From positions 53,986,505 to 54,050,504 of the forward strand of contig OX328104.1 in NCBI GenBank assembly GCA_946811185.2: a stretch of DNA of 64,000 nt, in the 5' to 3' direction. Source of the DNA: Hippopus hippopus (taxonomy: Eukaryota > Mollusca > Bivalvia > Cardiida > Cardiidae). Positions 37,253-54,743 of the stretch are shown in pieces. The notes below the pieces were generated by a model, which worked only from the letters and a program-made list of their open reading frames with translations, was not told where the DNA came from and did not search any database. The position numbers and the translations under genes were made by a program. Within the stretch, counting starts at the first letter, position 1. Each line of letters begins with the position of its first letter.

Positions 37253-37560
37253 AGTAGGTTGTAAAGTGGTATGTCTGGAAAATTTGGTGACGTGGATGAA
37301 TTTGCTAATTTGCCCATTACGAAAAAATCTATTTCCTCATAATTCTAAAGAAAATAAATTTCTTTACCCCACTAACCAACACCTCCCCCTAACCCCCACC
37401 CCACCTAATAGCCCCCATGTGTCGACGCAAGATAAGCCTATGCATGAGGGACTAACATAATTACTATATCCATTTCTACATAAAATTCAAAAAAATAAAT
37501 TAATGGATAAAAAATTTTTTTGAATTTCTTATTTTTTAACCCATAAAATAATTCAGGATG
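37253..37560 (+). repeat. Polinton left terminal inverted repeat
   Basis: Begins AGTAGGTTGTAAAG and matches the reverse complement of 54437-54743. The outer 220 or so bases are identical by eye; four small differences (two or three one-base indels in homopolymers and one C/T change) lie in the inner part. It contains a C-rich tract at 37376-37417 and an AT-rich inner part. It runs exactly into the ATG of the first gene, so it must carry that gene's promoter and leader. Confidence 0.95.
37376..37417. other. C-rich tract in left TIR (G-quadruplex potential on minus strand)
   Basis: Several runs of three to five C separated by short spacers, mirrored by G runs in the right repeat (54580-54629). 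The spacing fits the G3+N1-7 pattern. Formation in cells is inference. Confidence 0.5.
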
Positions 37561-38073
37561 GAGTCGTTAAAAGAGTTTTTAAAAGAGTTAAACTTAGATA
37601 AGGAGGTTAAACTTATGAGAGCAGTAGATGGAATGGAAGAAAATTTAATAAATATGAGTATAGCTAAAGATAAATTTAAAAACTTAATTTCAGATAAAGA
37701 ACTATTAGCGAGATTTGCTATACTTTTAGCTAATTATGCCAATAGTATTTTAGATTTCATAGACCCTAAAATCAATCAATGTGTAACTTTAAAGACTATG
37801 TTTTTTTCTAAAATTCATAGTGGAAGAAATCGCTCTAAGAAATTTTTAAGAAATGTATTTTGGGCAGATACTGGAATTAAATTAGATAAAAAATTAACTA
37901 GAAACCAATTGTTATGTAACTATGTAACACATCTTTTTGATGTGTTTGAAAAAGAATATTTACCAAGAGTTCCTACACACATTAGAGAAGTAAAAGAAAA
38001 AAAGATGGTAGTTATAGAATCTGGGGGTGTTATGCGAAATAAGGGGATTAAAGATGTTAACTTTTTATGTTAA
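37558..38073 (+). CDS. Unknown Polinton protein at left TIR edge (171 aa)
   Basis: I do not recognise this protein. It is lysine- and leucine-rich, probably alpha-helical, with no signal peptide or membrane segment. Residues 1-40 alternate charged and hydrophobic residues (amphipathic helix or coiled coil). A basic stretch GRNRSKK lies near residue 90, and two cysteines are scattered (about 76 and 121). The ATG is the last triplet of the left terminal repeat, preceded by AATTCAGG exactly as for the RING gene at the opposite end, so both genes share one duplicated promoter and leader. It runs convergently into polB, with a 15-bp hairpin between the two stops. Its position suggests an early or accessory function, but that is inference. 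Confidence 0.8.
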   Translation: MESLKEFLKELNLDKEVKLMRAVDGMEENLINMSIAKDKFKNLISDKELLARFAILLANYANSILDFIDPKINQCVTLKTMFFSKIHSGRNRSKKFLRNVFWADTGIKLDKKLTRNQLLCNYVTHLFDVFEKEYLPRVPTHIREVKEKKMVVIESGGVMRNKGIKDVNFLC

Positions 38074-38086
38074 GAAAGTTTTTTAC

Positions 38087-38121
38087 AAATATAATTTAAT
38101 TCATAAAATTAAATTATATTT
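38087..38121. terminator. Hairpin between convergent genes (15-bp stem)
   Basis: Perfect AT-rich inverted repeat: arms 38087-38101 and 38107-38121, loop CATAA. It lies between the stop of the left-end gene and polB, and covers the polB stop codon (38114-38116). A role in 3-prime end formation is plausible but unproven. Confidence 0.5.
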
Positions 38122-41100
38122 CACGATGTCCCCAAGCTAAAGTATCAATCTTGTCTTTCAAAACAAATCTTTTATCATCACTTGACCCTAACGCTTTTTT
38201 GTTTAACTCTTCAGTATACATATTATGCTCCCTACTTCTTAAAACAGTCATCTTTCTATACTGATCCTTTTCTGTAAGCAAACACTCTTTGTAATTATTT
38301 AAGTTTATCTCTTTCTTAACAACTGATTGTTTAACACCTTTACATCTTTTATCTTCCTCACCATCTAAAGTTTTATAAGCATACATTTTTGCCCCAAGAC
38401 CAACAAACTCAGTCATAATTTCACCACCTAACTCATCTTTAAACATTCCAACTACTCTAGCATTACAATCATTTTTTAAGAAATGATCTTTAGGATAATT
38501 GCTTGTATCAAACATTTTAACCACATCTTTCTCCATATCCTTATATAAATCGTCAGTTTCTACTTCGAGAATAAAACTATCCGTATCAGTATAACACATT
38601 CTAACCTTTTCACCATACTTAGGTTTAAAGTAATTATAATAAGTTTTTTGCATATGCGTTTTACTAATATCTAAGATGCTTAATCCTGAGTAAATAGGTT
38701 TATCATATACCAACTTAGTGTTTTTCATGTGTACCGCTGTTAGGTTTTCATCGAATATTTTTGCGTGACTATAGTTTGGTTTTGCTACTAATTTTCTACA
38801 ACGCTCTTCACTAGAAACCAGTTCTATTGATACTCTGTTTCTTAGATTTTCCATAGTTTTACCAAAAACTGAGTTATTCATTAATTTAAAAAAATCTTTT
38901 TCGAAATTATTTTTAGCCGCTTTTCTCAGTTCAATGTTTGCATCAATATATGATTTAAGCCACGGACTTTCCACAAACTTAATTCCTCGATGTATTTTAG
39001 TAATCTTTAAACCTAAATCAACACATGTTTTTAAAGCTTCATGATGAATAATATAATTTTCTTTATTATTTAAGTTTGGAATAAGTTTTTCTACCTTTTC
39101 AATCTTTAAACGTTCAGGAGCTAAAGGAAAGTCGTTATGTAAATCGTGTAATTCTCTCGGATATTCTAAATCTACTTCTAATATACATGAGGTTTTTTGC
39201 CAAATTTCTAATTCTTTATTTGTCATCCATTTAAAACCATGTGTAGGAAGAGGCCGACTCATTGCCCAAGGATAAAGACTGTTTGCATCTATATATAATA
39301 AATATTTTGATGGCTTACTAGAATCATATAATTTACCCATATACTTATTATTTGCTTCTGCGTATCTTTTACTACACATACTAACGCCTCCTTTGATACC
39401 CTTTTCAACCATTAAAAGCATATCAGAATCGCTTAAAAGCTCTAGGTTCACTTTCGTTATTTTTAATGTCGCATCCCAAGCTAAACCAGGGGCTGTATAA
39501 TACCAACTAGGGTCTAAATTATAGTTTTCGCGACAAACATCTCTAAAGTTCTCAAAAACATCCGCTAAAAGCAATACATCTATTTTATTGTAAAGTTCTA
39601 AGTAATCCTTCAACGTTTTCATGTTAAAAGTTCTCCAAACCTTTTGCGCATGAGCATAATCTTCATCACTAACTCCTTCTTTGTTTAAACTAGAGTAAAA
39701 TGCTTTTTTAGGTGGTAATTCTTTATCTTTAAGTTTATTAAATGAATCTAAGTACTCATAAGGGAAAACTCCTTTTCTCCTAACCAAAGATAACTCATTA
39801 GCATTAAAATATTTCGATAAAATTTTTAATTGGCTTTCTTTTAAGTTACTCGAAAGCTTATCTAAACTAGAACTCATAAACTTAAAACTATCAAGAAATT
39901 TAATTTTATGCTTTATATTTTTCCCGACCCAAAATTGTTTACTAAAACTAATATATTTCTCTTCATTATTTGGAATACAATCAATCCTCCCTGTAGATTT
40001 GCCAAGACATTTAATAAAAAGATGAGCGTCATACCCACTAAGATTATGAAGGTATACAGGTGTGAAGTTAGGGTTTTTAGCGTTTAGGGTACATTCAACG
40101 TGTGCGGCACCTCTATATTTACCCGTAAAATGACAATGGTCTCTTACTCTATAATTAACATGATTAAACTCCCCACCACAAATCCAACAATGTGTTTGTT
40201 TTTTATGTTCCATTTCTTCCTTTTCTGTAATTATAATAGGTTTTGGATTTTGGTAATATTCTTGATGAATTTCTCGTATATCATCTCTCAACCAGCTTAT
40301 AAAAACTTCATCAGCATTTTCCCCAACATAACTTCTTAATATAGGGGCTTTAACACTATCATCAAAGCATTTTATAATATAAACAAAACTACAAGGTATA
40401 TGCTTTTGATATTTCATAGTATAACTTTTTTCTGGGTTTGGTTGGCACGTGTGTATTGGCTCTAAAACACTTTCAAAATCAGCGTATACAACAAAGGGAA
40501 CCTCAAGTTTTCTAGAATGGTTTTTAAAAGCTGCCCAGGTATTTGGTTTTGGCATCTCTAAAGTAATAGGTTCGTGTTCATTACAATATTGTTTGTGTTT
40601 TTCCAAAAGTTTTTTACTACCAAAATGATTCAAACAACGTCCACAAATTTCCATATTTTTAGAGTTATGACTATTAGTTACTTGTCTTATTACTAATCTT
40701 TTAAGGTTTTTTATGAGAGCGTAGTGCATGTTTTCCTCATTTTTAATTAAAAGAAGGTTAACATGCTTACTTTTTTCACATTTTGTAAGCCTAAGCGGAT
40801 AAATGAATTTTTTATTCTCCTCATAACTATATACGTTTACACTAATTTCAGGATTTTGTGTTTCAAACTTCTTAATATCCTTAAGCGAAACAGGGTAGTC
40901 GATTCCCCCCATATTTAAACTACCTTCTTTTTCTTCCAAAGCTTTATCTAATAATTGGGGATTTTTTTCTTTTGGATTTAACTCTCTTAAAACACACCAT
41001 AAAAAACATTTATTATCTTTATTTTTCATATTAATAACTGCTTTTTTGTTAGCAATCCATGGGGGTAAAGGTATCCAACTATTAGCTCTTAAAGGAACAT

Positions 41101-41686
41101 AAGTAGCTGTATGTATTTCTAGTTTTACGATACTCCCAAAAGTCCAACCACTACCTTCTCTTTGGAAATTAGCTAAATTTTCTAAAACTTCATCTATCAT
41201 TGTGTTCAATAAATTCTCTATTTCTTCACTGTTTAAATTTAAATGTTGGCTACTATGAAAAGCACGTTCCACGGGACCCTGATCAATATCTGTCATTAAC
41301 CACATTTTACACCTAAGTACAAGTTTTACCTTTGTTCGTAAATTATTTCGAAGAGTATTTGTAATAGGCGTCCACGTTTCTGCGAAAAATCTTTGCGGGT
41401 TATAATTTCCTCTACCATCTATAACATATTGATTAACAAACTCTCTAAATGCTGAGCGCTCTCTTCTAACCTCAAACGGTTGTCTTGGTGGGTAATTCTC
41501 TCTAACATTCTGAACAATTTCATCAAGAACTCGTGGTAATTGGTTTTCTCTAACATTACCAGTTAACCAATCAGTAAAATTATTGATTCTACGTTGAACT
41601 GATTGAGGTATAGTGTTAGCTATAACTCTTCCAACATTTGATGCAGCTCTTCTAGCTATATCAGAAATTCCGTTAAGCCAAGACAT
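38114..41686 (-). CDS. polB: Protein-primed family B DNA polymerase (PolB)
   Basis: Replicates the element, using a terminal protein as primer by family analogy. The 1190-aa protein starts at the ATG directly preceded by TATAAA; the frame is open a further 44 codons upstream, but that part overlaps the neighbouring gene. Residues 1-340 are an N-terminal extension. A Cys2-His-Cys-type motif lies at 348-368 (CGRC...H...C) and a CWICG...HCH...C endonuclease VII-like zinc module at 500-532. Exonuclease motifs: ExoI YADFE 401-405, ExoII NLSGYD 548-553, ExoIII YNKID 699-703. Polymerase motifs: A DANSLYP 800-806, B KLMNNSVFG 934-942, C YTDTD 1032-1036. All catalytic acidic residues are present and no internal stop is seen, so the enzyme looks intact. 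Its length is usual for animal Polinton polymerases. Confidence 0.97.
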   Translation of the reverse strand: MSWLNGISDIARRAASNVGRVIANTIPQSVQRRINNFTDWLTGNVRENQLPRVLDEIVQNVRENYPPRQPFEVRRERSAFREFVNQYVIDGRGNYNPQRFFAETWTPITNTLRNNLRTKVKLVLRCKMWLMTDIDQGPVERAFHSSQHLNLNSEEIENLLNTMIDEVLENLANFQREGSGWTFGSIVKLEIHTATYVPLRANSWIPLPPWIANKKAVINMKNKDNKCFLWCVLRELNPKEKNPQLLDKALEEKEGSLNMGGIDYPVSLKDIKKFETQNPEISVNVYSYEENKKFIYPLRLTKCEKSKHVNLLLIKNEENMHYALIKNLKRLVIRQVTNSHNSKNMEICGRCLNHFGSKKLLEKHKQYCNEHEPITLEMPKPNTWAAFKNHSRKLEVPFVVYADFESVLEPIHTCQPNPEKSYTMKYQKHIPCSFVYIIKCFDDSVKAPILRSYVGENADEVFISWLRDDIREIHQEYYQNPKPIIITEKEEMEHKKQTHCWICGGEFNHVNYRVRDHCHFTGKYRGAAHVECTLNAKNPNFTPVYLHNLSGYDAHLFIKCLGKSTGRIDCIPNNEEKYISFSKQFWVGKNIKHKIKFLDSFKFMSSSLDKLSSNLKESQLKILSKYFNANELSLVRRKGVFPYEYLDSFNKLKDKELPPKKAFYSSLNKEGVSDEDYAHAQKVWRTFNMKTLKDYLELYNKIDVLLLADVFENFRDVCRENYNLDPSWYYTAPGLAWDATLKITKVNLELLSDSDMLLMVEKGIKGGVSMCSKRYAEANNKYMGKLYDSSKPSKYLLYIDANSLYPWAMSRPLPTHGFKWMTNKELEIWQKTSCILEVDLEYPRELHDLHNDFPLAPERLKIEKVEKLIPNLNNKENYIIHHEALKTCVDLGLKITKIHRGIKFVESPWLKSYIDANIELRKAAKNNFEKDFFKLMNNSVFGKTMENLRNRVSIELVSSEERCRKLVAKPNYSHAKIFDENLTAVHMKNTKLVYDKPIYSGLSILDISKTHMQKTYYNYFKPKYGEKVRMCYTDTDSFILEVETDDLYKDMEKDVVKMFDTSNYPKDHFLKNDCNARVVGMFKDELGGEIMTEFVGLGAKMYAYKTLDGEEDKRCKGVKQSVVKKEINLNNYKECLLTEKDQYRKMTVLRSREHNMYTEELNKKALGSSDDKRFVLKDKIDTLAWGHREI

Positions 41687-41762: not shown

Positions 41763-42101
41763 TTAATGAACGTTAATCCTATATTTATCTTTCCAAACCC
41801 TTCCATTCCAATTCTCAATCGTTTGTGGGCTGCGGTCTATAAATTGGCCCGCTTTATAAATGGATGGAAAGGTTTTTATTTCTCCGGTTTCAACATCCTC
41901 TAAACTAACTTTCTTAGGATTTTTCATAATAGTTTGTAATCTACCAAATTTAGAGTCTTTACTTTTTTCTTCTTTAGGTGGTTCACTCGGAAACAATCCA
42001 TGTTCTTTCACCAACTCAACTAAACGCTTTTTATTCCAGTATGAGTAGAAATTTATATTATTTTCTTTAAGAATTTGTTTTAAATCTGCAACCTTTATCA
42101 T
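41763..42101 (-). CDS. Small DNA-binding protein, SAP-like plus nuclease-repeat-like module (112 aa)
   Basis: Residues 1-36 resemble a SAP-type helix-extended-helix (DLKQIL...KRLVELVKEHGL). Residues 65-105 (DVETGEIKTFPSIYKAGQFI) resemble the NUMOD1/IENR1 DNA-binding module found with homing endonucleases: a short beta hairpin then a helix-turn-helix. There is no nuclease catalytic motif, so a DNA-binding accessory of replication or packaging is more likely than an enzyme. The start is preceded by TATATAAAA. It sits immediately upstream of polB in the same direction, and its end overlaps the non-coding upstream extension of the polB frame, which supports the shorter polB start. Both domain calls are by eye and moderate. 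Confidence 0.75.
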   Translation of the reverse strand: MIKVADLKQILKENNINFYSYWNKKRLVELVKEHGLFPSEPPKEEKSKDSKFGRLQTIMKNPKKVSLEDVETGEIKTFPSIYKAGQFIDRSPQTIENWNGRVWKDKYRINVH

Positions 42102-42123: not shown

Positions 42124-43407
42124 TTAATACACTACACTCATTTTACTTCCATCAGACTGAAAGTTAATTAACCTATCACTAATAATAACAGCATATGCCT
42201 CTGTATTCACAAGCACATTTTCAGTAAAACTCGCTTTGATTTGGATATCAGTGATAGAGTATTTTAATTTCGCACTCTGTTTGGAAACATCAAACAAAAA
42301 CAAAGGATAAAGGCTTTTATAATCTGGTGGAGTAATGTTAGGGTTTGACACCATTTCATTCATGTTATAAAACTTAGACCTAAATAGAGAAGCGTCCCCA
42401 TACACTCTACTAAATTGGTTTGCGGTAAAACTAAGATTATAATCAATAGCGGGATATCTAGTAGAATTTAACGTAACATAAATGTTATTAACGTTTCTAT
42501 GGTCAAATATAGCTGGATTTTGTTGCTGGTTCCCGCTTTTACCAGTTTGAAAACCAACAATGATAAAACGTGGCACTTCAGGTGATGATTTGACAGCGAG
42601 CCTCCAGGTAAATGATGTTGACTCGGGAACCGAAATAGAGTCACACTGCCTCATTCTATATCCAACCGGTATTTTTTCTTTTTTCTCAATAATTTTATAA
42701 AGTTGCATTTTCTCTTCATCTGAGGGTAACACATGAGGCATAAACCAAGATACTCTAAGTAAATTAATTCTACCATCAGCAGGAGCAGCACCATCTCGAA
42801 AGATTGCATCATTATCATTATTTCTCGTTAATGTGAGAGTTTGCTTCATTCCATACAATATTTTATCATAATCATCACAAAAACCAAATATATGTTTTAA
42901 TGGAACTCTGAAGCTAAAGGTGCCTCTTGGAAGAGGGTTATTAATAATATAATTTCTTCTTACAATAAAACCAGTGTTTCCGGCACCCGCGTTAGCTGCT
43001 GTATCTTTATACCACAATTGATTTAACCCTTGTGATTTAGAAAAATCATCCGGGTATTTTAACAACCCAAGCATTGTAGTAGCCTGACCAGGATTCAATA
43101 CAGATTCAATCTCCATACCCGAAAGTTGGTACTTAATATTTTTAAAAAGATACATGAGGCCATTGTTTGTTAAAGAAATATCAGCGTTAGCATCGTAAAC
43201 TGCTCCAGTATCACTTCTTACTAATTCACCTACAAAAACTAAATAACTCTCACTAGGATGAGTAAAAATATCTTGAGTCTCAATGTTAATTCTAATTTCT
43301 CCTAGGTTGTTAAGGTTTGTACCGGTGATTGGCTCATACTCATGGTGTTCATACTCAGCAATACTATCATCTTTTAAGATTGGTTCAGTTATTCTTAAAA
43401 TGTCCAT
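42124..43407 (-). CDS. Putative major capsid protein (427 aa)
   Basis: Probably the double jelly-roll major capsid protein, called from context and composition rather than a catalytic motif. It is the longest structural candidate in the element. It is rich in beta-prone residues and asparagine, with no membrane segment, and has well-formed tracts such as PGQATTMLGLLKYPDDF (about 105-121) and LKHIFGFCDDYDK (about 170-182). 427 aa is short for Polinton capsid proteins but within the range of double jelly-roll proteins such as phage PRD1 P3. The ATG is preceded by TTATAAA. It lies in the leftward structural block whose other end holds the penton-like and packaging ATPase genes. A structure prediction would settle it. 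Confidence 0.65.
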   Translation of the reverse strand: MDILRITEPILKDDSIAEYEHHEYEPITGTNLNNLGEIRINIETQDIFTHPSESYLVFVGELVRSDTGAVYDANADISLTNNGLMYLFKNIKYQLSGMEIESVLNPGQATTMLGLLKYPDDFSKSQGLNQLWYKDTAANAGAGNTGFIVRRNYIINNPLPRGTFSFRVPLKHIFGFCDDYDKILYGMKQTLTLTRNNDNDAIFRDGAAPADGRINLLRVSWFMPHVLPSDEEKMQLYKIIEKKEKIPVGYRMRQCDSISVPESTSFTWRLAVKSSPEVPRFIIVGFQTGKSGNQQQNPAIFDHRNVNNIYVTLNSTRYPAIDYNLSFTANQFSRVYGDASLFRSKFYNMNEMVSNPNITPPDYKSLYPLFLFDVSKQSAKLKYSITDIQIKASFTENVLVNTEAYAVIISDRLINFQSDGSKMSVVY

Positions 43408-43461: not shown

Positions 43462-43821
43462 TTAAATTACAAACCAAAGCTGGGGATAAGACTTATTATT
43501 ACCATTAACAAACACACCTTGGAGTTTAATGTTTTTTGTGGCACCCAGTTCAGCTTTTGGATAAACTTTATTACCGTATACAAGTGTTATTTCGGGTATA
43601 CCGTTATCTTTTAAATATTCATTCACATTTTTCTCAATCTCTTTTATCTTGGTTACCTTTTCAGAAGACAACTTCACAACAGCTTTTTTTTTACCATATT
43701 TCGTTTTATCAATTCCGAGGATATCACAATCTTCTATGTTTAAAGAAGAAGCGCCTGTTATTTCAATACTAGTACTATTGTATTTTTCATTATCTGTACG
43801 ATTAAAATTTAATATACCCAT
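43462..43821 (-). CDS. Unknown small virion-block protein (119 aa)
   Basis: Not recognised. Charged and beta-rich: residues 45-70 form a lysine/glutamate amphipathic helix (KLSSEKVTKIKEIEKNVNEY), followed by a predicted beta-rich end closing in PQLWFVI. No signal peptide, membrane segment or cysteine cluster. An OB-fold-like single-strand binding role is conceivable for a protein near polB, but nothing in the sequence proves it. The start is preceded by TTATAAAAAA. It lies between the capsid gene and a small pX-like gene, in the same direction. Confidence 0.75.
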   Translation of the reverse strand: MGILNFNRTDNEKYNSTSIEITGASSLNIEDCDILGIDKTKYGKKKAVVKLSSEKVTKIKEIEKNVNEYLKDNGIPEITLVYGNKVYPKAELGATKNIKLQGVFVNGNNKSYPQLWFVI

Positions 43822-43870: not shown

Positions 43871-44269
43871 TCATACTGTTTTAATACCCGCTCCACTGTT
43901 TAATCTTTTAACTAAGTCTTGAATAGCAATAGCACTTCCATCTATTAATGCGCTAATGTTTTGCGTTTTAGGAGTATCATTAGGTTTTGGTGTTGCATTA
44001 TATTTTTGTAAAATTTGTTTCGATTTTGGTGTTAAGGCTTTCGTAACTAATTTTTTCCCCGCTTCTACCACCGCACTTTTTCCAACCTCTAGAGCTTTCT
44101 TTGCTCCTTCCTTAGCTACACTCTTTCCTACATCAAGAGCAGAAGACGTAATTTGTTTAGCTGCACTACTAGTAAAAAGTCTCGTTAAAAAGTTAGCAAT
44201 ACTATCAAAGATTCCGGAACCACCGTGTAAATACTTTGTTTTAAATCCGTGTTTCTTATTGATTATCAT
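43871..44269 (-). CDS. Small basic virion protein with adenain-type cleavage site (132 aa)
   Basis: Probably a minor or core virion protein analogous to adenovirus pVI/pX. Residues 14-18 read LHGG-S, fitting the adenovirus protease consensus (M/I/L)XGG-X. Cleavage there would release a 17-residue basic leader and expose GIFDSIANFLTRLF, an amphipathic helix of the membrane-lytic or capsid-binding kind. Residues 35-80 are alanine/lysine-rich helical repeats (DVGKSVAKEGAKKALEVGKS). The start is preceded by TTATAAAAAAG, which overlaps the stop of the upstream gene. The protease it would need is encoded at 50592-51008. Function is inference from motif and context. Confidence 0.75.
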   Translation of the reverse strand: MIINKKHGFKTKYLHGGSGIFDSIANFLTRLFTSSAAKQITSSALDVGKSVAKEGAKKALEVGKSAVVEAGKKLVTKALTPKSKQILQKYNATPKPNDTPKTQNISALIDGSAIAIQDLVKRLNSGAGIKTV

Positions 44270-44274: not shown

Positions 44275-45198
44275 TTATAATGAAGACATTAAATTTTTAT
44301 AGGAGTGCGAATTTATAACACCTTGTCTTTTTAATTCATCACAAATACTTACTAACTCATTTCTTACACCTGTATTACCTGCTTCTTTACTTGCCATCAA
44401 CAGACCTAGTCTTTCTACTAATGCGTTAGGGTCAGATGGGATAACAATTCCTTTTCCAGATGTTCCCATATCATACCAAAAGTTGGAAAGCATGTTTTTC
44501 CATTTATATGATTTACCACTTTTTGGAGATTTAGATTTTGGGTTATTATTACGATAGAGGGTATTGCTGTTTACCATTATCTCATTGTAATTTTTAAAAT
44601 CCTCATCATTATAAATATTTTCGTCTGGTTTTCTAGATACGATTAATTCCCATAAACCAGGGGTACCCTCATAATAATCATCACCAACTAAAATATCATC
44701 GTCTAAAATACCAACTGGTGTGTTGCCAATATAAAATCTACCATTTTTGTCATATAACCCATACGTTGTATCAGCTTCAGACTTAGTAGCAAACTTTCTT
44801 AGGTACTTCTCCGCGAGTGGTCCAACAAAAACTGGATATTCTTCTACTCCTGCTTCTGTTTCTGCTGTTCTCAAATCTTTTATAGCCTGCTTAAGCTGTT
44901 CAACTTCATCTTCTTCTGGTTTTCCATAAGCTGTGATAGATGGAAATGCTGGAAAAGTAATAGCTTCTGGTAATTTTTCTACACCTTCTTTAATAGGTTT
45001 AAGCCCCTCTGTAATCTCCTTTGTTGTAGCTTTTTGCGTTTCTGTAATAGGTCTAAAAAACTTTGACAAATCGGTTTGAAGTTGTTGTTCACCTGTTCTC
45101 TCTGCTAGTAGATTATCTCGAATCTTTTTTTTCGTTTCGAGATACTCTTTTACAATTAAGTCTCTTTTTGCAGGGTCAGTTATTTTTAGAAATGACAT
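44275..45198 (-). CDS. Conserved-looking Polinton structural protein, function unknown (307 aa)
   Basis: Function unknown. Residues 8-50 are strongly helical and charged (coiled-coil candidate), 52-80 continue as a lysine/glutamate helix, and 85-95 are proline- and aromatic-rich. The middle contains an ordered-looking stretch (TTYGLYDKNGRFYIGNTPVG, about 145-164) and a YEGTPGLWELIVS motif near 179-191. A basic, serine-rich linker (about 222-232) precedes a helical C-terminus. No cysteine clusters, catalytic signature or membrane segment. The gene starts after a 12-bp tandem-repeat and hairpin region, unlike its neighbours with a plain TATAAA box, so it may head its own transcription unit. A coiled-coil scaffold or minor capsid role is a guess. 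Confidence 0.8.
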   Translation of the reverse strand: MSFLKITDPAKRDLIVKEYLETKKKIRDNLLAERTGEQQLQTDLSKFFRPITETQKATTKEITEGLKPIKEGVEKLPEAITFPAFPSITAYGKPEEDEVEQLKQAIKDLRTAETEAGVEEYPVFVGPLAEKYLRKFATKSEADTTYGLYDKNGRFYIGNTPVGILDDDILVGDDYYEGTPGLWELIVSRKPDENIYNDEDFKNYNEIMVNSNTLYRNNNPKSKSPKSGKSYKWKNMLSNFWYDMGTSGKGIVIPSDPNALVERLGLLMASKEAGNTGVRNELVSICDELKRQGVINSHSYKNLMSSL

Positions 45199-47575: not shown

Positions 47576-48349
47576 TCATCTCGCTTCTCTAATATGAAAC
47601 CTAATCGTTAAATTTTCGCCTCTAAGATTTAGTAAATTACCATCTTGGTCAGTAATATTTACATCTAGGCTATGTATTTCATCTAACGTTATTGGTAAGT
47701 ATACTAAATTAACTGGTGACTCAATTATCTTATATCCAGGTGCAACATCTGGGAAAAAAGAGTAAATAGTATTTCTTGTTGAACTATTAACGTAACTTCC
47801 CGAAATAATATCTATGTTAACGAGTAAACTATTTATGCTAAGAATGTTCACTACATTCTCTGACTCATGAAATCCTTGCGAATATTTAGCTCGAGTAAAT
47901 CCTAATACTTTAGCGATGGAACCTGGTTGATTAAAATCTACTTGATAACTATCATCAATAATAAGAACAGACTTTAGGGTATTAGTGTTCGCAGAAAAGT
48001 TAATAGGGTACTCTTCATTAACTCTATCGTAATGACCATTTTTTCTCATTTTCTGACGAATCGTATCATTAATGTCAACGAGGTCGTAACTTCCTTCAGG
48101 TATTTTTATTTTAACCCATGTGTTGCCATTGTCTGGAGAATAAACGAATGTGCCGTTCGTTTCATCAATGTTTGGAAAAGAGTAGTAAGTTTCAAGGTTT
48201 ACCATAGCTATTTCGTATTCTTTATCCTTTTCCAATTGAATTGGTGGATTAAACCTTGTTCTAAAACTTGTTTTGTTGTCGCTTACTATGATTTGAAGCG
48301 ATGTTTTGTTGCTCGTATTTTTAACAATTTGTTCTAAAAGTTTTTCCAT
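47576..48349 (-). CDS. Penton-like minor capsid protein (257 aa)
   Basis: Likely the single jelly-roll protein closing capsid vertices. It is beta-rich, lacks Cys clusters and membrane segments, and has an N-terminal strand series (SLQIIVSDNKTSFRTRFNPP, 17-36). The C-terminal half has features I associate with Polinton penton proteins: NSLLVNIDIISGSYVN, YSFFPDVAPGYKI and LRGENLTIRFHIRE. The length is usual for this family. The ATG is preceded by TTATAAA. It lies between the packaging ATPase and the core-like protein, in the same direction. Identification rests on recognition and context; a jelly-roll structure prediction would confirm it. Confidence 0.75.
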   Translation of the reverse strand: MEKLLEQIVKNTSNKTSLQIIVSDNKTSFRTRFNPPIQLEKDKEYEIAMVNLETYYSFPNIDETNGTFVYSPDNGNTWVKIKIPEGSYDLVDINDTIRQKMRKNGHYDRVNEEYPINFSANTNTLKSVLIIDDSYQVDFNQPGSIAKVLGFTRAKYSQGFHESENVVNILSINSLLVNIDIISGSYVNSSTRNTIYSFFPDVAPGYKIIESPVNLVYLPITLDEIHSLDVNITDQDGNLLNLRGENLTIRFHIREAR

Positions 48350-48370: not shown

Positions 48371-49153
48371 TTATACTGGTTTAGGTATGTAGAAGTTATC
48401 AAAACCACTTCTATACTTTCCATCATTTTTTTTACTGGATAAGTCGATGATAGCAAAACCATGTGGTCTTTCCCATGCCTCTCGACAAAACTTTCTAAAC
48501 TCATCCTTAGGCATATCATCACCTACATGATCGCTATAAATATGATTAACGCTTTTTGTATTTTGTGGAAAAAGGCAAATAAAATTAGCGTTTTCTCTAA
48601 TAGTTTGTCTCGGTAGCTTAAAATAATTCTGGGCGAGGTAAAAGCAGTCAACATTACTATGCCTTCCTCGAGTGTAGTAACACTCACATTTATTTTGCTT
48701 TTCTAAAAGTATATCATCGAAAATCATTAAATTTTTATTTCCTGAGTTTAACTCTCTTGGGTCAGGTACATCACTACCATTTTCAAAGAAGTTGCAATTT
48801 ATATCCGATTTGTCTTTAATCGTTTTAGCCCATTCTTCAACTAAAACCGATGGTGAAGCGTCTGTTTTTTGTATTTCATCACGCATGTTAAACAATCTTA
48901 AGATATGTTCTTTTGGTAGTTTTTCTTCAAAAGCCTTTTTTAGTATTTTGTATTCCGGTTGAAAAAGACTTTTTCCAAAAACACTTAAATCGTTGTAGTC
49001 AAGCCATCCCGGTCTGAGTAAAAGGTTTAACAATAAAGTAGTTTTACCACATCCTGATTTACCTACAATTAAACCCCTAATACTTCCCGGTAAAAGGGGG
49101 TGATTAAATTTCTTTGGTACTACTTCATTCCATGATAAGTTCATAATATCCAT
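48371..49153 (-). CDS. Genome-packaging ATPase (FtsK/HerA type)
   Basis: Pumps the genome into the capsid by family analogy. Walker A is GKSGCGKT at 31-38 and Walker B is NLMIFDD at 141-147 with a double aspartate. An RGRH stretch at 162-165 may supply the arginine finger. FYLAQNYFKLPR at 171-182 matches the post-Walker-B sensor region of A32-type ATPases. 260 aa is the usual size. The gene is the first of the long leftward block and is separated by 40 bp from the divergent rightward block. All key residues are present. No frame damage. Confidence 0.95.
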   Translation of the reverse strand: MDIMNLSWNEVVPKKFNHPLLPGSIRGLIVGKSGCGKTTLLLNLLLRPGWLDYNDLSVFGKSLFQPEYKILKKAFEEKLPKEHILRLFNMRDEIQKTDASPSVLVEEWAKTIKDKSDINCNFFENGSDVPDPRELNSGNKNLMIFDDILLEKQNKCECYYTRGRHSNVDCFYLAQNYFKLPRQTIRENANFICLFPQNTKSVNHIYSDHVGDDMPKDEFRKFCREAWERPHGFAIIDLSSKKNDGKYRSGFDNFYIPKPV

Positions 49154-49193: not shown

Positions 49194-49349
49194 ATGTATT
49201 GCGTTAAATGTAAAAAACATACAGATACGAATAATATAAAATATTCTGTTTCTAAAAATGGTAGAAATATGATGCAGGGGAAATGTGTTATTTGTGGAAT
49301 AACTAAATCACAATTTATAAAAAAAAAACCTCCGGGAGTAGTATATTAA
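49194..49349 (+). CDS. Zinc-ribbon miniprotein (51 aa)
   Basis: A very short but convincing frame with two CxxC knuckles, CVKC at 3-6 and CVIC at 31-34, separated by a basic linker containing SKNGRNMMQGK. This is a four-cysteine zinc ribbon. The C-terminus is basic (KSQFIKKK). It has its own TATATAAAA box 6 bases upstream. It is the first gene of the rightward block, directly before the phospholipase frame, so co-transcription is likely. A nucleic-acid-binding or transcription role is the likeliest function, unproven. Confidence 0.75.
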   Translation: MYCVKCKKHTDTNNIKYSVSKNGRNMMQGKCVICGITKSQFIKKKPPGVVY

Positions 49350-49378: not shown

Positions 49379-49687
49379 ATGCATCTACCAGGGCACAACT
49401 TTACGGGACCAGGTACCAAACTAAATAAAAGACTTAATCCAGATTTAACACCGAAGGAATGGAGTAAACCTATAAACCGTGTTGATAAAGCCGCTTATAA
49501 TCATGATGTTTGCTATCTTCAACACAATGATACTGCTACAAGAAACGCAGTGTGTGATAAGAATATGTTAACGGAGTTAGAAGGTATTTACAATCCTAGT
49601 ATTAGAGAAAAAATGGAAAGAGGTTTGGTAAGTAGACTCATTGGAACGAAAATGAAATTTGGAATGGGAGTAAAAAAAAAAATTTAG
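49379..49687 (+). CDS. Phospholipase A2-like domain protein, frame ends at A-run (102 aa)
   Basis: Resembles the parvovirus-type secreted phospholipase A2 domain used to breach endosomal membranes. The calcium-loop motif HNFTGPGT is at 6-13, and the catalytic helix DKAAYNHDVCY at 37-47 carries the His-Asp pair. No signal peptide. The frame terminates five residues after entering an 11-A run (49672-49682). The integrase frame, which has no ATG of its own upstream of its first catalytic residue, continues in the -1 frame across the same run. So this is probably the N-terminal part of a larger phospholipase-integrase polyprotein, made by -1 frameshifting or split by loss of one A. No ATG precedes this start in frame after the last stop. 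Confidence 0.85.
   Translation: MHLPGHNFTGPGTKLNKRLNPDLTPKEWSKPINRVDKAAYNHDVCYLQHNDTATRNAVCDKNMLTELEGIYNPSIREKMERGLVSRLIGTKMKFGMGVKKKI
49672..49682 (+). other. 11-A slippery run joining phospholipase and integrase frames
   Basis: The A-run begins after GGAGT. In the phospholipase frame it leads to ATT TAG at 49682-49687; in the -1 frame it leads into the integrase N-terminus. It is either a programmed frameshift site, a one-base deletion, or a homopolymer sequencing error. Confidence 0.75.
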
Positions 49688-50580
49688 CTGAAGAATTACA
49701 TAAACCCGTAAAAAGAAATTTTAAGAAAAGGAGAGTTAGAGTAAACGGTATAGATAGGATATGGGCTGCGGATTTAGTAGACATGCAAGCATTTTCTAAG
49801 CTTAATCGTGGTGTTAAATACCTTCTCGCTGTCATTGATATCTTTTCTAAATATGGGTATCTGGTGCCATTAAAAGATAAAACAGGAAAATCTGTTGCTA
49901 TAGCATTAAAAAATATTTTTAAGGAGAGAAAACCTGAAAAAATGTGGGTAGATAAGGGTAAAGAGTTTTATAACAAAGATGTAAAAGACTTGGTTGAATT
50001 ATATTCTACCGAAAATGAGGAAAAATCTAGTGTGGTTGAGAGATGGATTAGAACAATGAAAGAAAAAATGTGGAAGTATTTCTCCGCTAACTCTACAAAC
50101 GTTTACATTAATGTGCTACCGGATTTAGTTAAAGAATATAATAGCACGAGACATTCATCTATTAAGATGGCCCCGGTAAACGCTAGTAAAAAAGAAAATG
50201 AAACGAGAGTTTGGAGAAATCTTTACCCCGATAATCTTGAAATAAGAGACTCTAATCCTAATTTCTCTGTTGGAGACAAAGTAAGGATAACTAAAAAGAA
50301 AAAGACTTTTGAGAAAGGTTATACAACAAGATGGACTGAGGAGGTTTTTACAGTTTCTGAGGTTAAACATACATCACCTATAACATATAAAATTAAAGAT
50401 TTTAATGGAGAAGAAATACAAGGTACCTTTTATGAACCTGAACTGCAGAAAACTAGTCAAGAGGTGTATAGGATAGAAAAGGTTATTAAAAAAGGAAAAA
50501 AGAAATCTCTCGTAAAGTGGAAAGGTTATCCCGATGAATTTAATTCGTGGGTTGACAATAAAGATATTAGAAATATTTAA
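49684..50580 (+). CDS. int: Retroviral-type DDE integrase with C-terminal chromodomain
   Basis: Catalyses insertion of the element. The first ATG in frame is at 49783, but the conserved segment begins upstream: WAADLVD, holding the first catalytic Asp (codon 49771-49773), lies before that ATG. The frame is open from 49636 without any ATG. The protein must therefore come from a fusion with the preceding phospholipase frame or from a disrupted gene. Counting from 49783, the second catalytic Asp is D57 (WVDKGKEF) and the Glu is E86 (VVERW). That is 28 residues between, shorter than the usual 35. Residues 228-265 form a chromodomain (YRIEKVIKKG...LVKWKGYP...SWV), which may target chromatin. 49684 is the first codon past the A-run and is not a start. 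Confidence 0.93.
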   Translation, partial: LAEELHKPVKRNFKKRRVRVNGIDRIWAADLVDMQAFSKLNRGVKYLLAVIDIFSKYGYLVPLKDKTGKSVAIALKNIFKERKPEKMWVDKGKEFYNKDVKDLVELYSTENEEKSSVVERWIRTMKEKMWKYFSANSTNVYINVLPDLVKEYNSTRHSSIKMAPVNASKKENETRVWRNLYPDNLEIRDSNPNFSVGDKVRITKKKKTFEKGYTTRWTEEVFTVSEVKHTSPITYKIKDFNGEEIQGTFYEPELQKTSQEVYRIEKVIKKGKKKSLVKWKGYPDEFNSWVDNKDIRNI

Positions 50581-50591: not shown

Positions 50592-51008
50592 ATGACAAAT
50601 ATTTCGATTGAAAACGTAATTTTACCGAATAAACCGTTAACCAATTTCGAATTAGAGGATGCCGTTAAAAAATTAAAGATTCCTTATTTTAGAGGAGTTT
50701 TTTTACTAGACTCACTACCGAGAAAACCGAGTAAAAAAGAATGTGGTATAGTAAACTTTGATAAAAGTGATGGACCTGGTACACATTGGGTCGCTTGGTA
50801 TAAAAATGGTAAAATTAAAATTTATTTCGATAGTTATGGTATACAACCGCCTCTTGAAATTCGAGATTATTTAAAAAGTCCAATACAGTACAATACTGAC
50901 CAATTACAACAAGCTGGGCAAGTATTTTGCGGTCATTTATGTTTATACATTCTAAAAGAGTTATCTAGAGGTAATCGGTTCCAAAATGTTTTAAATAAAC
51001 TTTTTTAA
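50592..51008 (+). CDS. Adenain-like maturation cysteine protease (138 aa)
   Basis: Cleaves virion precursors in adenovirus-related systems. The triad is visible: His65 in GTHWVAWY, Asp80 in IYFDSYG and Cys113 in VFCGHLC. Gln106 lies seven residues before the cysteine, as in adenain (Gln115/Cys122). The protein is shorter than adenain (about 200 aa) but usual for Polinton proteases. The ATG follows CTATAAAAAAA, 11 bases after the integrase stop. Likely substrates with XGG-X sites are encoded at 43871-44269 and 46963-47547. Frame intact. Confidence 0.93.
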   Translation: MTNISIENVILPNKPLTNFELEDAVKKLKIPYFRGVFLLDSLPRKPSKKECGIVNFDKSDGPGTHWVAWYKNGKIKIYFDSYGIQPPLEIRDYLKSPIQYNTDQLQQAGQVFCGHLCLYILKELSRGNRFQNVLNKLF

Positions 51009-51022: not shown

Positions 51023-52237
51023 ATGCCTGTTGACAAATTCGGAAGAATGAAAGATGATGGCGAAACAAGCGGCGATGGCGTGTCACTCGCTTACATAAAT
51101 AATAATTTCTTACGTAAAGATGGAACAACTGTTGTTACCGGTTCCATAGACATGAATGGCAATACATTAACGAGGGTTAGTAATCCAGTAAATTCTCATG
51201 ATGTTGCAACTAAGGCTTATGTTGACGCTAACTCAGGGTTGTTGGGCGAAAACGGAGGATACCATGTTAGTGGGTATTTAAATATGGGTTTTAACCCGAT
51301 AAGAAATGTTAAGGATCCAAAAGAACCGGGTGAAGCTGCTACTAAAAATTATGTGGATAATGTTGATAGAGCCTTCGTTTATAAAGACGGAAGGTGGTAT
51401 GAGGCAGATGATGCAATCTCAATGGGAGGACGAGTAATTAACAATCTCGGAACCCCCACGAGACACGACCAAGCCTCTAATAAGTTTTATGTGGATACTA
51501 GTATTGAGAGAGTTACCGCGGGTGAAAAAGCTTTAACGAAGAAACAAGATGGGTCCTATTCAATAGATGGCGGAATAGATATGAATGGTAACCAGATTAC
51601 TGGATTATCGAGCCCCATATCCCAAGATGCGGTTACCACTAAAGGTTATGTTGATGACCTCGTTAAAAATATTAGAGGTGGCCAAGGTGCTATGTATAGA
51701 TCTTTCTCAATGAAAGCGAATGGGGAACTATCAGTAAACCAACCTATTGATATGAATAATTTAAGAATATATAATATTGCGGACCCAAGAAATGAAAAAG
51801 ATGTTGTCACTAGAGAATATATGGAGCGTTTCTTCGGGGCATATAAACCAAAACCTGTTATAACCGTGTGGGCTGAAGAACAGGGCCCAATTTCAAACGG
51901 TAATTACGAGTTTTCATTCGGTAATGGTAATTCTGGTAAAAGACACGGTTTAGGAGGTTACTGTATGAGTGCATCAGGTAGAATTATAAGAGGAAGTTTA
52001 ACGGTCGTTAAAAGGGATCGTAATGCACCAGAAGAGGTAAAAATTAATATAACGGTAAACGGAAATGAAAAGGTTGATTACACTATTATTAAAAAAGCGG
52101 ACGAAACTTGTAGCTGTACGGTTTTTCCAAGAGCGTTGGAGGTAGACCAATGCAGCATAATAAACTTTATTTCGAGAACAAATAACCGAGATGTAACACA
52201 CGCTTACATATCTATTTTAATAGAATTAGACTTGTAA
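51023..52237 (+). CDS. Fibre-like attachment protein with five shaft repeats (404 aa)
   Basis: Probably a trimeric receptor-binding fibre. After a 39-residue base, five repeats follow the pattern (hydrophobic)xMxGxxIxxLxxPxxxxDAxTKxYVD. They lie at about 40-70, 84-114, 130-160, 183-213 and 240-270; the period grows from 44 to 57 residues. The pattern is like phage tail-fibre shaft repeats. Residues 271-404 form a distinct beta-rich head with the segment NGNYEFSFGNGNSGKRHG and a Cys pair CSCTVF. The head is the natural place for host specificity. The ATG follows CTATATAAAAAA, 14 bases after the protease stop. By eye the gene is richer in G, C and CpG than the leftward block, which could mean a separate origin. 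Confidence 0.82.
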   Translation: MPVDKFGRMKDDGETSGDGVSLAYINNNFLRKDGTTVVTGSIDMNGNTLTRVSNPVNSHDVATKAYVDANSGLLGENGGYHVSGYLNMGFNPIRNVKDPKEPGEAATKNYVDNVDRAFVYKDGRWYEADDAISMGGRVINNLGTPTRHDQASNKFYVDTSIERVTAGEKALTKKQDGSYSIDGGIDMNGNQITGLSSPISQDAVTTKGYVDDLVKNIRGGQGAMYRSFSMKANGELSVNQPIDMNNLRIYNIADPRNEKDVVTREYMERFFGAYKPKPVITVWAEEQGPISNGNYEFSFGNGNSGKRHGLGGYCMSASGRIIRGSLTVVKRDRNAPEEVKINITVNGNEKVDYTIIKKADETCSCTVFPRALEVDQCSIINFISRTNNRDVTHAYISILIELDL

Positions 52238-52287: not shown

Positions 52288-53223
52288 TTATTGGCGACAC
52301 ATGGGGCATTTATCTAAAGGATGCATTCTATCACATTCTTCGCATACGCATACGTGTTTGCATCCATTAAAAGATATATTCGGTTTATTAAGCATACATA
52401 TACAACAATTATCCTCGATAAACATTTTTTGTTTTTTAATGTTAGTTGCTGGTTTGGGTTTTAAAAACTCTATATCATAATAATTTCCGTCTTCTATAAC
52501 GTGAAATGAATTATTGAAATCTCTCTTATTAATGAACATCGTTTCTGGGTGGGGTTTGGTTCCTCTAAAACATATTTCTCTTAGCGTAATTTTAACGAGT
52601 GTAGCGGCGCTTTTAGTACATTTAACGTACTTAAATAGTTTTACATTCCTCGTTAATTCATCTATTTCTCGTAACGCTTCATTTACATCGGGGTCTCCGT
52701 ATAAATTTCCTAGTCTGTCACTAAATTCTATTATAGGAGAAAGGAAATTACAATCTCCATTTTCCCCGGGGTCTCTGCGGAATAGGAACATTTCAGGTGC
52801 GAAATCGTACATATGTCTACTGAAATTTATTCTATTTTGGTAAGGAACCAGGTGCCTATAAGTTCCTGGTCTAGTATCAAACCAGTATGCTCCAATTCTT
52901 TTCCTCGTTATCGATTCATTATCATAAAGGCCAACCCATACAGATAAATTATTCGTATGTTGTCGTTTTATTTCTCTACTAAAACAATAGTACATAACGG
53001 GGCTCGCTTTTCTCATAGTAACGAAATAATCCTTGTGATGGATACCCGGGAAATATATTTTTCTTTCTTCGGGCTCAAACATAGGTAGTTCGTTAAATTT
53101 ATTATTTATGTGATTTTCTAACTTTTCTAAGTCATCGGGGGTAAATCGATCTAGTACCGCACGGTTTAAAGGCATCCTATCTAGAACATCTAGATAATTT
53201 TCGTTATCATATAGAGAACCCAT
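52288..53223 (-). CDS. RING-finger protein 1, putative E3 ubiquitin ligase (311 aa)
   Basis: The C-terminal 42 residues form a RING of the IAP/MDM2-like kind: CCICMLNKP, then GCKHVCVCEEC, then CPMC (C-x2-C...C-x-H-x3-C-x2-C...C-x2-C). RING proteins transfer ubiquitin from E2 to substrates. Residues 1-265 are an unfamiliar, aromatic- and arginine-rich domain, without BIR repeats, so not a plain IAP. The ATG lies in AATGTAATGG, where an upstream ATG-TAA overlaps the start; the small gene behind it has the same arrangement. It is convergent with the fibre gene. It is likely an accessory gene aimed at host defence, by analogy with RING proteins of large DNA viruses. Confidence 0.82.
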   Translation of the reverse strand: MGSLYDNENYLDVLDRMPLNRAVLDRFTPDDLEKLENHINNKFNELPMFEPEERKIYFPGIHHKDYFVTMRKASPVMYYCFSREIKRQHTNNLSVWVGLYDNESITRKRIGAYWFDTRPGTYRHLVPYQNRINFSRHMYDFAPEMFLFRRDPGENGDCNFLSPIIEFSDRLGNLYGDPDVNEALREIDELTRNVKLFKYVKCTKSAATLVKITLREICFRGTKPHPETMFINKRDFNNSFHVIEDGNYYDIEFLKPKPATNIKKQKMFIEDNCCICMLNKPNISFNGCKHVCVCEECDRMHPLDKCPMCRQ

Positions 53224-53256: not shown

Positions 53257-53580
53257 TCAATTTTTTATTTTCCCTTTATTCCATCTTCTGATGTAGTTCT
53301 TTAGGCCTTTTTGGAGATTGCTTTTGACGTAGTTTACGAGTTCGTTCTTATTACGGAGCTGTTCATCCTCTAACCTCCAATATTTCCGCGGTATTACTTT
53401 TTTATCTAGATCGGGTTTAACTCGATAGTAAATAAGCAAATCGATTAATTCGCTTTTGGTCCAATATTTAATTGGTTTTTCGTTTCCTCTTCTTTTATGG
53501 TCTAAAGGTTCACATAATTCGAATAATCCCCTTTTGAAATATCGTTTATGAAATTCTTCCCTATCGTGCTCATATTCCAT
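53257..53580 (-). CDS. Unknown basic protein between the RING genes (107 aa)
   Basis: Not recognised. It is very rich in Lys, Arg and aromatic residues. Two helical repeats of similar layout (WTKSELIDLLIYYRV and LRNKNELVNYVKS) resemble SAP-like or LEM-like DNA-binding helices, but weakly. I chose the ATG at 53580 because it lies in AATGTAATGG, identical to the start context of the neighbouring RING gene. The frame is open up to 53634 but has no earlier ATG. It lies 5 bases from the end of the upstream RING gene if that open stretch is counted. Probably co-transcribed with both RING genes. Confidence 0.65.
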   Translation of the reverse strand: MEYEHDREEFHKRYFKRGLFELCEPLDHKRRGNEKPIKYWTKSELIDLLIYYRVKPDLDKKVIPRKYWRLEDEQLRNKNELVNYVKSNLQKGLKNYIRRWNKGKIKN

Positions 53581-53638
53581 TACATTAATGTGCTGGAGGA
53601 GATGATAATATTTTTCAAATTCTTTTTTTAACAAAAGA

Positions 53639-54439
53639 TTATGTTCTACACAATGGACATTTAAATAACCTACATGTTAATTCACCTATTTCATTACACT
53701 CATCACATATACATGCATGACCACAATCAAATACTTTATTAGGTTTTTTAACTTTACATATACAACATTTATCCTCCAAAAAGAAATTTTTTGCTTTTTT
53801 TAGTTTTTTAAGTTCTGGCGTGTACTTATAACCAAGTGTTATATTATTCGCTTCTCTAGTAAGATCTTCTAATCCAACCCAACAATAACCATAACATAAT
53901 ATATAACCTTGACTTTTACCTTGTTTATTATATGACTCTATTTCCTTTCTAACATATTCACTACTATAATAATCAGGATGAATATCATTTCTAAATGTTG
54001 TTATAGGATATATCGTATAAGTAGTTGGAACCGGTTCTCTATCTTTATCTTCCACTAGTTCCAACAAAGCATCTTTATAATCACCAATGAAATTATTACT
54101 CCTACAAAATGGTATTTCAATGACAGCATACATATTATTACCTCTGTAGCGATTAGGGTCTCTATTATAACGACACTGGTCTGGCCAAACCATAAAAATA
54201 GTTGTGGTGAAATCAGATTCATCCAACCTTTGTTTACTATGTAAGTAATAATTGTATGGTATTAATTTCTTTAACATAACAATTGGGTCAAACATTTGTG
54301 GTTGTAGTAAACTACTATTTATAATCATATACAATTTCTTTTTTGGTGAATAGAACTTAATTAAACGGTGTTTATTTTCAATAACTCTTTCTAGGTTGTG
54401 TATAATTTTATAATTTCTAAATCTATCTAACACACTCAT
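53639..54439 (-). CDS. RING-finger protein 2, putative E3 ubiquitin ligase (266 aa)
   Basis: C-terminal RING (about 222-266): CCICKVKKP, DCGHACICDEC and CPLC, clearly paralogous to the RING of 52288-53223. The shared lead-in is FLEDKCCIC against FIEDNCCIC. Both follow a lysine-rich linker. The N-terminal 200 residues are different and unrecognised, with many Tyr and Asn. The ATG sits exactly at the inner edge of the right terminal repeat, after the same AATTCAGG leader as the left-end gene, so its promoter is inside the repeat. Two diverged copies suggest duplication and different targets. Transferred host-defence modulator is the likeliest role; substrate unknown. Confidence 0.82.
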   Translation of the reverse strand: MSVLDRFRNYKIIHNLERVIENKHRLIKFYSPKKKLYMIINSSLLQPQMFDPIVMLKKLIPYNYYLHSKQRLDESDFTTTIFMVWPDQCRYNRDPNRYRGNNMYAVIEIPFCRSNNFIGDYKDALLELVEDKDREPVPTTYTIYPITTFRNDIHPDYYSSEYVRKEIESYNKQGKSQGYILCYGYCWVGLEDLTREANNITLGYKYTPELKKLKKAKNFFLEDKCCICKVKKPNKVFDCGHACICDECNEIGELTCRLFKCPLCRT

Positions 54440-54743
54440 CCTGAATTATTTTATGGGTTAAAAAAATAAAAAATTCAAAAAAATTTTTTATCCATTAATT
54501 TATTTTTTGAATTTTATGTAAAATGGATATAGTAATTATGTTAGTCCCTCATGCATAGGCTTATCTTGCGTCGACACATGGGGGCTATTAGGTGGGGTGG
54601 GGGTTAGGGGGAGGTGTTGGTTAGTGGGGTAAAGAAATTTATTTTCTTTAGAATTATGAGGAAATAGATTTTTTCGTAATGGGCAAATTAGCAAATTCAT
54701 CCACGTCACCAAATTTTCCAGACATACCACTTTACAACCTACT
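54437..54743 (-). repeat. Polinton right terminal inverted repeat
   Basis: Inverted copy of 37253-37560, ending ...ACAACCTACT. Its inner edge coincides with the start codon of the leftward RING gene at 54439. The G-rich strand is on top at 54580-54629. Confidence 0.95.

What the first reader, a model, noticed from the sequence alone, without database searches (positions are those of the whole stretch)
37253..54743. Complete, apparently recent Polinton/adintovirus-like element with full virion gene set
Both terminal repeats, exact TAGATT duplications and nearly all open frames are preserved, and the two repeats differ at only about four positions. It combines replication, integration, maturation, packaging and capsid genes with a phospholipase domain, fibre, two RING proteins and two dUTPase-fold proteins. 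This is a strong candidate for a still-active mobile element or an endogenised virus lineage in a mollusc.
Basis: partly seen in the sequence, partly recalled or inferred. Interest (0 to 1): 0.88.

Follow-up and report, generated by a model that had tools for sequence, protein, structure and literature searches.

The report
Young Polinton/adintovirus-like element, split integrase gene
A 17.5-kb virus-like mobile element of a known and very common animal kind sits almost intact in this genome, but as the sequence is written its integrase, the enzyme it needs to insert itself, is cut off from its start by runs of A.

Summary
A 17,491-bp element (37253-54743) has about 308-bp inverted repeats with 4 differences and an exact TAGATT duplication; 21 open frames cover 92% of it. 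Family matches support hexon, ATPase, integrase with chromodomain, PLA2 and RINGs; PolB and protease rest on motifs. It is a Polinton/Maverick of adintovirus-like type: 5,261 of 7,994 scored hexon candidates are relatives, the best 74% identical. A new member of a known kind.

Zinc ribbon, PLA2 and integrase, one protein in 13 of 120 listed relatives, lie here in three frames meeting at A10 and A11 runs; the integrase frame's first ATG follows its first catalytic Asp. In 76 of 120 relatives the integrase ORF also starts just before that junction without PLA2, scattered over a weakly resolved tree; which frame PLA2 has in them is often unclear. 'Still active' is unproven, the dUTPase fold only a weak match, the host unverified.

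The parts
37247..37252 (.). target-site duplication TAGATT, left
   Evidence: exact match to 54744-54749 and no longer match
37253..37560 (+). left terminal inverted repeat; its inner edge reaches the ATG of the first gene
   Evidence: 223 bp perfect, 309 columns at 98.7%; both inner ends read TTCAGGATG
37558..38073 (+). ORF 171 aa, unknown
   Evidence: open frame; no Pfam match better than E 0.039
38114..41686 (-). PolB from the ATG of MSWLNG; three exonuclease and A, B, C polymerase motifs (recalled definitions); Endonuclease VII-like segment
   Evidence: motifs; PF02945 E=5.4e-4, below cut-off, and phrog_423 E=3.9e-6; no Pfam DNA polymerase match
41763..42101 (-). HeH/LEM-domain protein
   Evidence: PF12949 E=2e-5, below curated cut-off
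42124..43407 (-). major capsid protein (hexon), double jelly roll
   Evidence: PF21738 E=7.8e-53; 5,261 relatives of 7,994 scored, best 74% identity over the full length
43462..43821 (-). ORF 119 aa, unknown
   Evidence: open frame, no match
43871..44269 (-). ORF 132 aa, unknown (possibly minor virion protein, inferred from position)
   Evidence: open frame; no significant match
44275..45198 (-). ORF 307 aa, unknown
   Evidence: open frame; no significant match
45380..46057 (-). ORF 225 aa, unknown
   Evidence: open frame; no significant match
46081..46458 (-). ORF 125 aa, weakly dUTPase-like, paralogue of the next
   Evidence: PF00692 E=0.035, below cut-off; 31% identity to 46512-46922; no homologue at E<=1e-3 among 2 candidates
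46512..46922 (-). ORF 136 aa, paralogue of the previous
   Evidence: no dUTPase match of its own
46963..47547 (-). ORF 194 aa, unknown (possibly minor virion protein, inferred)
   Evidence: open frame; no significant match
47576..48349 (-). ORF 257 aa, candidate penton (position and size only)
   Evidence: open frame; no library match
48371..49153 (-). packaging ATPase, A32-like
   Evidence: PF04665 E=1.7e-7; P-loop and LMIFDD motifs
49194..49349 (+).
   Evidence: PF18930 E=4.6e-14
49319..49328 (+). A10 run where zinc-ribbon and PLA2 frames meet
49379..49687 (+). PLA2 domain, parvovirus type
   Evidence: PF08398 E=1.5e-9
49636..50580 (+). integrase frame (rve core + chromodomain); first ATG at 49783, after the first catalytic Asp codon at 49771 (catalytic role recalled)
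   Evidence: PF00665 E=1.5e-7 (just below cut-off), PF00385 E=5.6e-6; positions
49672..49682 (+). A11 run where PLA2 and integrase frames meet
50592..51008 (+). adenain-like cysteine protease
   Evidence: motifs; best PDB sequence match the adenoviral proteinase, weak, E=0.029
51023..52237 (+). fibre-like protein with phage-tail-fibre-type repeats
   Evidence: 18 PHROG families, best E=6.3e-19; tail fiber gp9 in PDB E=3.7e-6; five copies of the repeat's end motif
52288..53223 (-). RING protein 1
   Evidence: PF13920 E=7.1e-8
53257..53634 (-). ORF 125 aa, unknown
   Evidence: open frame from TTG; no significant match
53639..54439 (-). RING protein 2
   Evidence: PF13920 E=8.9e-5, below cut-off; 38% identity to RING 1 over 85 columns at the C-terminus
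54437..54743 (-). right terminal inverted repeat; its inner edge reaches the ATG of RING protein 2
54744..54749 (.). target-site duplication TAGATT, right

Best explanation
It is a recently inserted, integrated copy of a Polinton/Maverick of the adintovirus-like animal type. Shown: bounded repeats and 6-bp duplication, PolB motifs, hexon, ATPase, protease motifs, PLA2, integrase with chromodomain. Inferred from the known families: it replicates by protein-primed PolB from the inverted repeats, packages DNA with the A32-type ATPase into a double-jelly-roll capsid matured by the protease, enters with fibre and PLA2, and inserts with the integrase, which makes the 6-bp duplication. The repeats run up to the start codons of both outermost genes, so they probably also hold those genes' promoters. 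In this copy, as written, zinc ribbon, PLA2 and integrase are out of frame with each other at two A-runs, so a full integrase is probably not made; the copy is probably stuck or movable only in trans. The A-rich PLA2-integrase junction is probably a recurrent weak point of the family that tends to break early.
For: Boundaries. Genes. Family: 5,261 hexon relatives at E<=1e-3 of 7,994 candidates scored; the 120 listed are 68-74% identical. Integrase: 4,491 relatives of 5,113 candidates, 120 listed. In 23 of these 120 PLA2 and integrase share an ORF, in 13 of the 23 with the zinc ribbon. In 76 of 120 the ORF starts less than 28 residues before the anchor that follows the junction, without PLA2. 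By members: 727 in the 33 joined clusters, 282 in those 76, 59 in 11 without anchor. Joined or not is scattered on the integrase tree: 27 changes against 28.7 in shuffles, 124 of 500 shuffles as low, 11 changes forced by starred branches. Two of the four differences between the inverted repeats are homopolymer lengths.
Against: Frame inference in relatives is weak: of the 76, 28 fit one other frame, 34 the other, 14 are unclear, but the same test mis-called 16 of 66 peptides of known same frame as the second kind and 2 of 66 as the first, with 29 unclear; at least three (MGVKKK starts: P0130, P0215, P0226) look in frame by eye. The integrase tree is poorly resolved (13 of 107 inner branches starred, quick method), which by itself scatters labels. 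A cluster of 149 members (P0227) has the integrase without PLA2 in its ORF, so that form may also spread. The only two breaks lie at the two longest homopolymers, which is also what sequencing error would give. No DNA of a relative was found, so A-runs in relatives are inferred from lysine-rich protein stretches. No Pfam DNA-polymerase match for PolB. Penton is a guess from position.
Confidence: 0.69

Rival explanations
1. The breaks are assembly errors: the true A-runs have other lengths, and the copy encodes one zinc ribbon-PLA2-integrase protein and may be active.
For: Both breaks fall on the two longest homopolymers of the element (A10, A11), while the three ORFs holding T8-T9 runs are open; two of four repeat differences are homopolymer lengths.
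Against: A real homopolymer change after insertion predicts the same. In the 13 relatives with all three domains in one ORF the zinc ribbon-PLA2 link is not a plain lysine run, so the A10 run looks like a feature of this copy.
Confidence: 0.27
2. The element expresses the integrase by slippage of ribosome or RNA polymerase on the A-run, so that the frame does not matter.
For: Lysine-rich junction in most relatives whose ORF reaches it; in 76 of 120 the ORF starts just before the junction while the integrase is otherwise long; slippery sites have been suggested for other adintovirus genes (section 16 of PMC11071296).
Against: Joined clusters hold 727 of 1,068 members of the 120 clusters; the largest, P0178, has an interrupted lysine stretch, so slippage is not needed there; both offsets seem to occur (and two relatives that show the other readings in a joined ORF, P0136 and P0239), whereas a programmed site would keep one. 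The offset numbers are unreliable (control).
Confidence: 0.16
3. It is not an integrated element but a circulating virus contig or contamination.
For: Full virion gene set.
Against: Exact 6-bp duplication, and flanks of other composition that share interspersed repeats with each other on both sides.
Confidence: 0.02

Closest known systems
Polinton/Maverick elements (vertebrate Mavericks, PMC8097293; passages and section 7 read)
   Same: 6-bp duplication, inverted repeats, size within 12.7-24.6 kb, PolB, ATPase, integrase, hexon, protease; ends begin AGT
   Different: End motif here AGTAGG..CCTACT, there most often AGTAGT..ACTACT. Gene order: here PolB to ATPase run one way, then zinc ribbon-PLA2-integrase, protease and fibre the other way, then RING genes back; not the two facing modules of that paper
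Adintoviruses (definition in PMC11071296, passages and section 16 read; founding paper PMC8502044 not held)
   Same: hexon and rve integrase with C-terminal chromodomain; PolB with a possible OTU-like N-terminal region (by eye)
   Different: alpha or beta class not assigned; a zinc ribbon-PLA2-integrase protein is not mentioned in that section
Sf Mavericks of a moth cell line (PMC5803895; passages read)
   Same: integrase with chromodomain, parvovirus-type PLA2, Endonuclease VII-like segment in PolB, A32-like ATPase
   Different: there PLA2 is in a separate capsid-like ORF (258 aa), the integrase is its own ORF (310 aa), and the usual Maverick capsid protein is said to be absent; here a hexon is present

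Membership tests
Polinton/Maverick | terminal inverted repeats | tested here: met
Polinton/Maverick | 6-bp target-site duplication | tested here: met
Polinton/Maverick | family B DNA polymerase | tested here: met
   six motifs in order, definitions recalled; but no Pfam polymerase match
Polinton/Maverick | retroviral-type integrase | tested here: met
   PF00665 E=1.5e-7, 0.6 bit under cut-off; 4,491 relatives; frame not joined to a start before the first Asp
Polinton/Maverick | packaging ATPase | tested here: met
   PF04665 E=1.7e-7
Polinton/Maverick | adenoviral-type protease | tested here: inconclusive
   motifs present; best PDB sequence match adenoviral proteinase E=0.029; no family match
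Polinton/Maverick | double-jelly-roll major capsid protein | tested here: met
   PF21738 E=7.8e-53
Polinton/Maverick | single-jelly-roll minor capsid protein | tested here: inconclusive
   candidate 47576-48349 matches no library
Intact Maverick (PMC8097293 sense) | all conserved ORFs intact | tested here: not met
   integrase frame lacks an ATG before the first catalytic Asp
Adintovirus | chromodomain at integrase C-terminus | tested here: met
   PF00385 E=4.3e-6, above cut-off
Adintovirus | OTU-like domain at PolB N-terminus | tested here: inconclusive
   no Pfam match listed at E<=10; similarity by eye only
Adintovirus | hexon recognisable by BLASTp against reference adintovirus hexons | not tested
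   references not held
dUTPase | dUTPase fold and catalytic motifs | tested here: inconclusive
   E=0.035, below cut-off, for one of two; model pLDDT 32; catalytic motifs not recognised by eye

The most novel reading that the evidence does not exclude
The lysine/A-run between PLA2 and integrase is a switch: its length changes often, turning the joined zinc ribbon-PLA2-integrase protein on and off (or letting a minority of product through by slippage), so that most copies keep the virion genes but not insertion, much like phase-variable genes of bacteria.
Probability: 0.07. Interest if true: 0.7.

Novelty: new member of a known kind. Interest (0 to 1): 0.4.

Why it matters
It adds a well bounded, young animal Polinton/adintovirus-like element and shows that counting open frames is not enough to call such a copy active: the integrase is split, at a junction where many relatives also lack a joined ORF. 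It also points to a joined zinc ribbon-PLA2-integrase protein in a part of the relatives (13 of 120 listed), with second D and E only 28 residues apart in all 96 of 120 relatives that the pattern could read, against the 35 usual for this class (recalled).

Tried and rejected
A fixed programmed frameshift at the A-run: not taken as the main reading, because joined and not-joined relatives are mixed on the tree and both offsets seem to occur. A first count of offsets (39 and 37 of 76) scored the same-frame case unfairly; redone with a control it gave 28, 34 and 14 unclear, and the control was poor (66 peptides of known same frame: 19 right, 29 unclear, 16 and 2 wrong). So the offset counts are not used as evidence, and the confidence of the best explanation was lowered from 0.72 to 0.69, that of the slippage rival raised from 0.15 to 0.16. 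Two of the 33 'joined' rows (P0136, P0239) show an altered PLA2 tail.

DNA relatives: five scans of viral contigs, one of genome contigs and one protein search of phages found none. Structure prediction failed: dUTPase-like protein pLDDT 32 with 2 rows, integrase pLDDT 41.6 with 46 rows; the Foldseek run on the latter is meaningless and not used. A PDB profile search gave weak matches of the core to solved integrases (six rows, E 0.033-0.55, two of them named PFV integrase); the single-sequence search gave none. Rfam at gathering thresholds: no match. An empty site inside the window: in the part of the output shown (it was cut) no repeat match of either flank reaches the insertion point; the long ones in the left flank stop about 240 bp before it. 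Hexon tree: the window lies in a supported set of 31 rows that holds the four scallop rows; most rows give no organism, so no host was read from it.

Papers: PMC11071296 (passages, section 16), PMC8097293 (passages, section 7); passages only of PMC10120064, PMC3671162, PMC5803895, PMC4061559, PMC2836005, PMC4642659, PMC10294476; other papers as search listings. I do not claim that the zinc ribbon-PLA2-integrase protein is undescribed: searches of this library listed no paper whose title, abstract or seen passages describe it, and the founding adintovirus paper is not held.

Full report
What is there. The element runs from 37253 to 54743 (17,491 bp). The outer 223 bp of both ends are perfectly complementary and the repeat continues to 37560 and 54437: 309 aligned columns, 98.7% identity, i.e. 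4 differences, one a substitution and three single-base indels, two of these in homopolymers. TAGATT flanks both ends exactly and the match goes no further. Both repeats end inside with TTCAGGATG, whose ATG starts the outermost gene on each side (37558 on +, 54439 on -); so each repeat probably also carries a promoter (inference). In 2-kb windows GC is 0.30-0.35 inside and 0.33-0.40 outside, with a strong skew inside.

Genes. Twenty-one frames cover 16,109 of 17,491 bp, counting PolB from its ATG at 41686 and the integrase frame from 49636. Family matches: hexon PF21738 E=7.8e-53, A32-type ATPase 1.7e-7, PLA2 PF08398 1.5e-9, chromodomain and the first RING pass Pfam's cut-offs; HeH/LEM (2e-5), integrase core and the second RING are below theirs. 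PolB has Exo I-III and motifs A, B, C in order (definitions recalled) but no Pfam polymerase match; an Endonuclease VII-like segment lies inside it, as is also tabulated, weakly, for Sf Mavericks (PMC5803895, passages). The protease has the expected motifs and its weak best PDB sequence match is the adenoviral proteinase. The fibre has repeats like those of phage tail fibres. Penton and other small virion proteins are inferred from position only.

Kinship. Of 7,994 hexon candidates scored, 5,261 passed E<=1e-3; the 120 listed are 68-74% identical, and the four with an organism name are Ylistrum balloti, a scallop. The element is a new member of this abundant family. No relative's DNA could be fetched.

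The integrase. A 51-aa DUF5679 zinc-ribbon ORF (E=4.6e-14) starts 40 bp from the divergent ATPase start. Zinc ribbon, PLA2 and integrase lie in three different frames that meet at an A10 run (49319-49328) and an A11 run (49672-49682). The integrase frame has no ATG before its first catalytic Asp codon (49771); the first is 49783. In relatives the three are often one protein: of the 120 listed integrase relatives, 23 have PLA2 and integrase in one ORF and 13 of those the zinc ribbon too. At the PLA2-integrase junction, 33 of 120 have at least 28 residues upstream in the same ORF, 76 start less than 28 residues before the anchor after the junction, and 11 start at or after the anchor. Which frame PLA2 has in the 76 is only partly known: by back-translation 28 fit one other frame, 34 the other and 14 are unclear, but in a control the method placed only 19 of 66 same-frame peptides rightly, 29 were unclear and 18 wrong, 16 of them as the second kind. 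Two relatives in which the other readings appear inside a longer ORF (P0136, P0239) suggest that both offsets exist.

On a tree of 110 integrases (109 relatives with an anchor plus the window; the 11 others dropped), made from the part after the junction, joined or not needs 27 changes against a mean of 28.7 in shuffles (124 of 500 as low), 11 of them forced by starred branches; but only 13 of 107 inner branches are starred, and the search was the quick one. So the state probably changes again and again, though the tree is weak. Joined clusters hold 727 members, the 76 hold 282, those without anchor 59 (members are near-copies at 90% identity, not independent events). The simplest reading: the joined form is what multiplies, and the A-rich junction is an early place to break or to be mis-sequenced. 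Against it: cluster P0227, 149 members, has the integrase without PLA2 in its ORF.

Catalytic spacing. From the second D to the E of VVERW (taken as catalytic from recall) there are 28 residues in all 96 relatives that the pattern read; 24 of 120 were not matched, some through changes at these residues or in the pattern. The window has the same stretch (one search counted to another E and gave 22). The usual 35 is recalled. The structure prediction that could have tested the geometry failed.

What it does. By analogy with Polintons (established knowledge): protein-primed replication, packaging, capsid, entry with PLA2 (lipases are proposed to act at entry, PMC4642659, passage), integration with a 6-bp duplication. 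Shown here are only the parts. Whether this copy moves is open: as written it probably cannot by itself.

Verdict. Real, young, well bounded, of a known kind; the interest lies in the split integrase and its junction, not in the element as such.

Noticed in passing
   Followed up: yes
49951-50040: The spacing from second D to E of the integrase is 28 in all 96 of 120 relatives that the pattern read, instead of the usual 35 (recalled).
   Followed up: partly
45220-45285: A 12-bp unit repeated about 5 times between two virion-region genes.
   Followed up: no
49154-49193: Only 40 bp separate the divergent ATPase and zinc-ribbon starts, a possible two-way promoter (coordinates).
   Followed up: no
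51023-52237: Fibre-like protein with repeats typical of phage tail fibres in an animal element.
   Followed up: partly
46081-46922: Two paralogous small proteins, weakly dUTPase-like; a search with the first found no homologue at E<=1e-3 (2 candidates shared words).
   Followed up: partly
21062-21577: Stop-to-stop frame that looks by eye like a Tc1/mariner transposase fragment.
   Followed up: no
29753-30217: 225-bp tandem unit, part of a repeat of about 220 bp scattered over both flanks.
   Followed up: no
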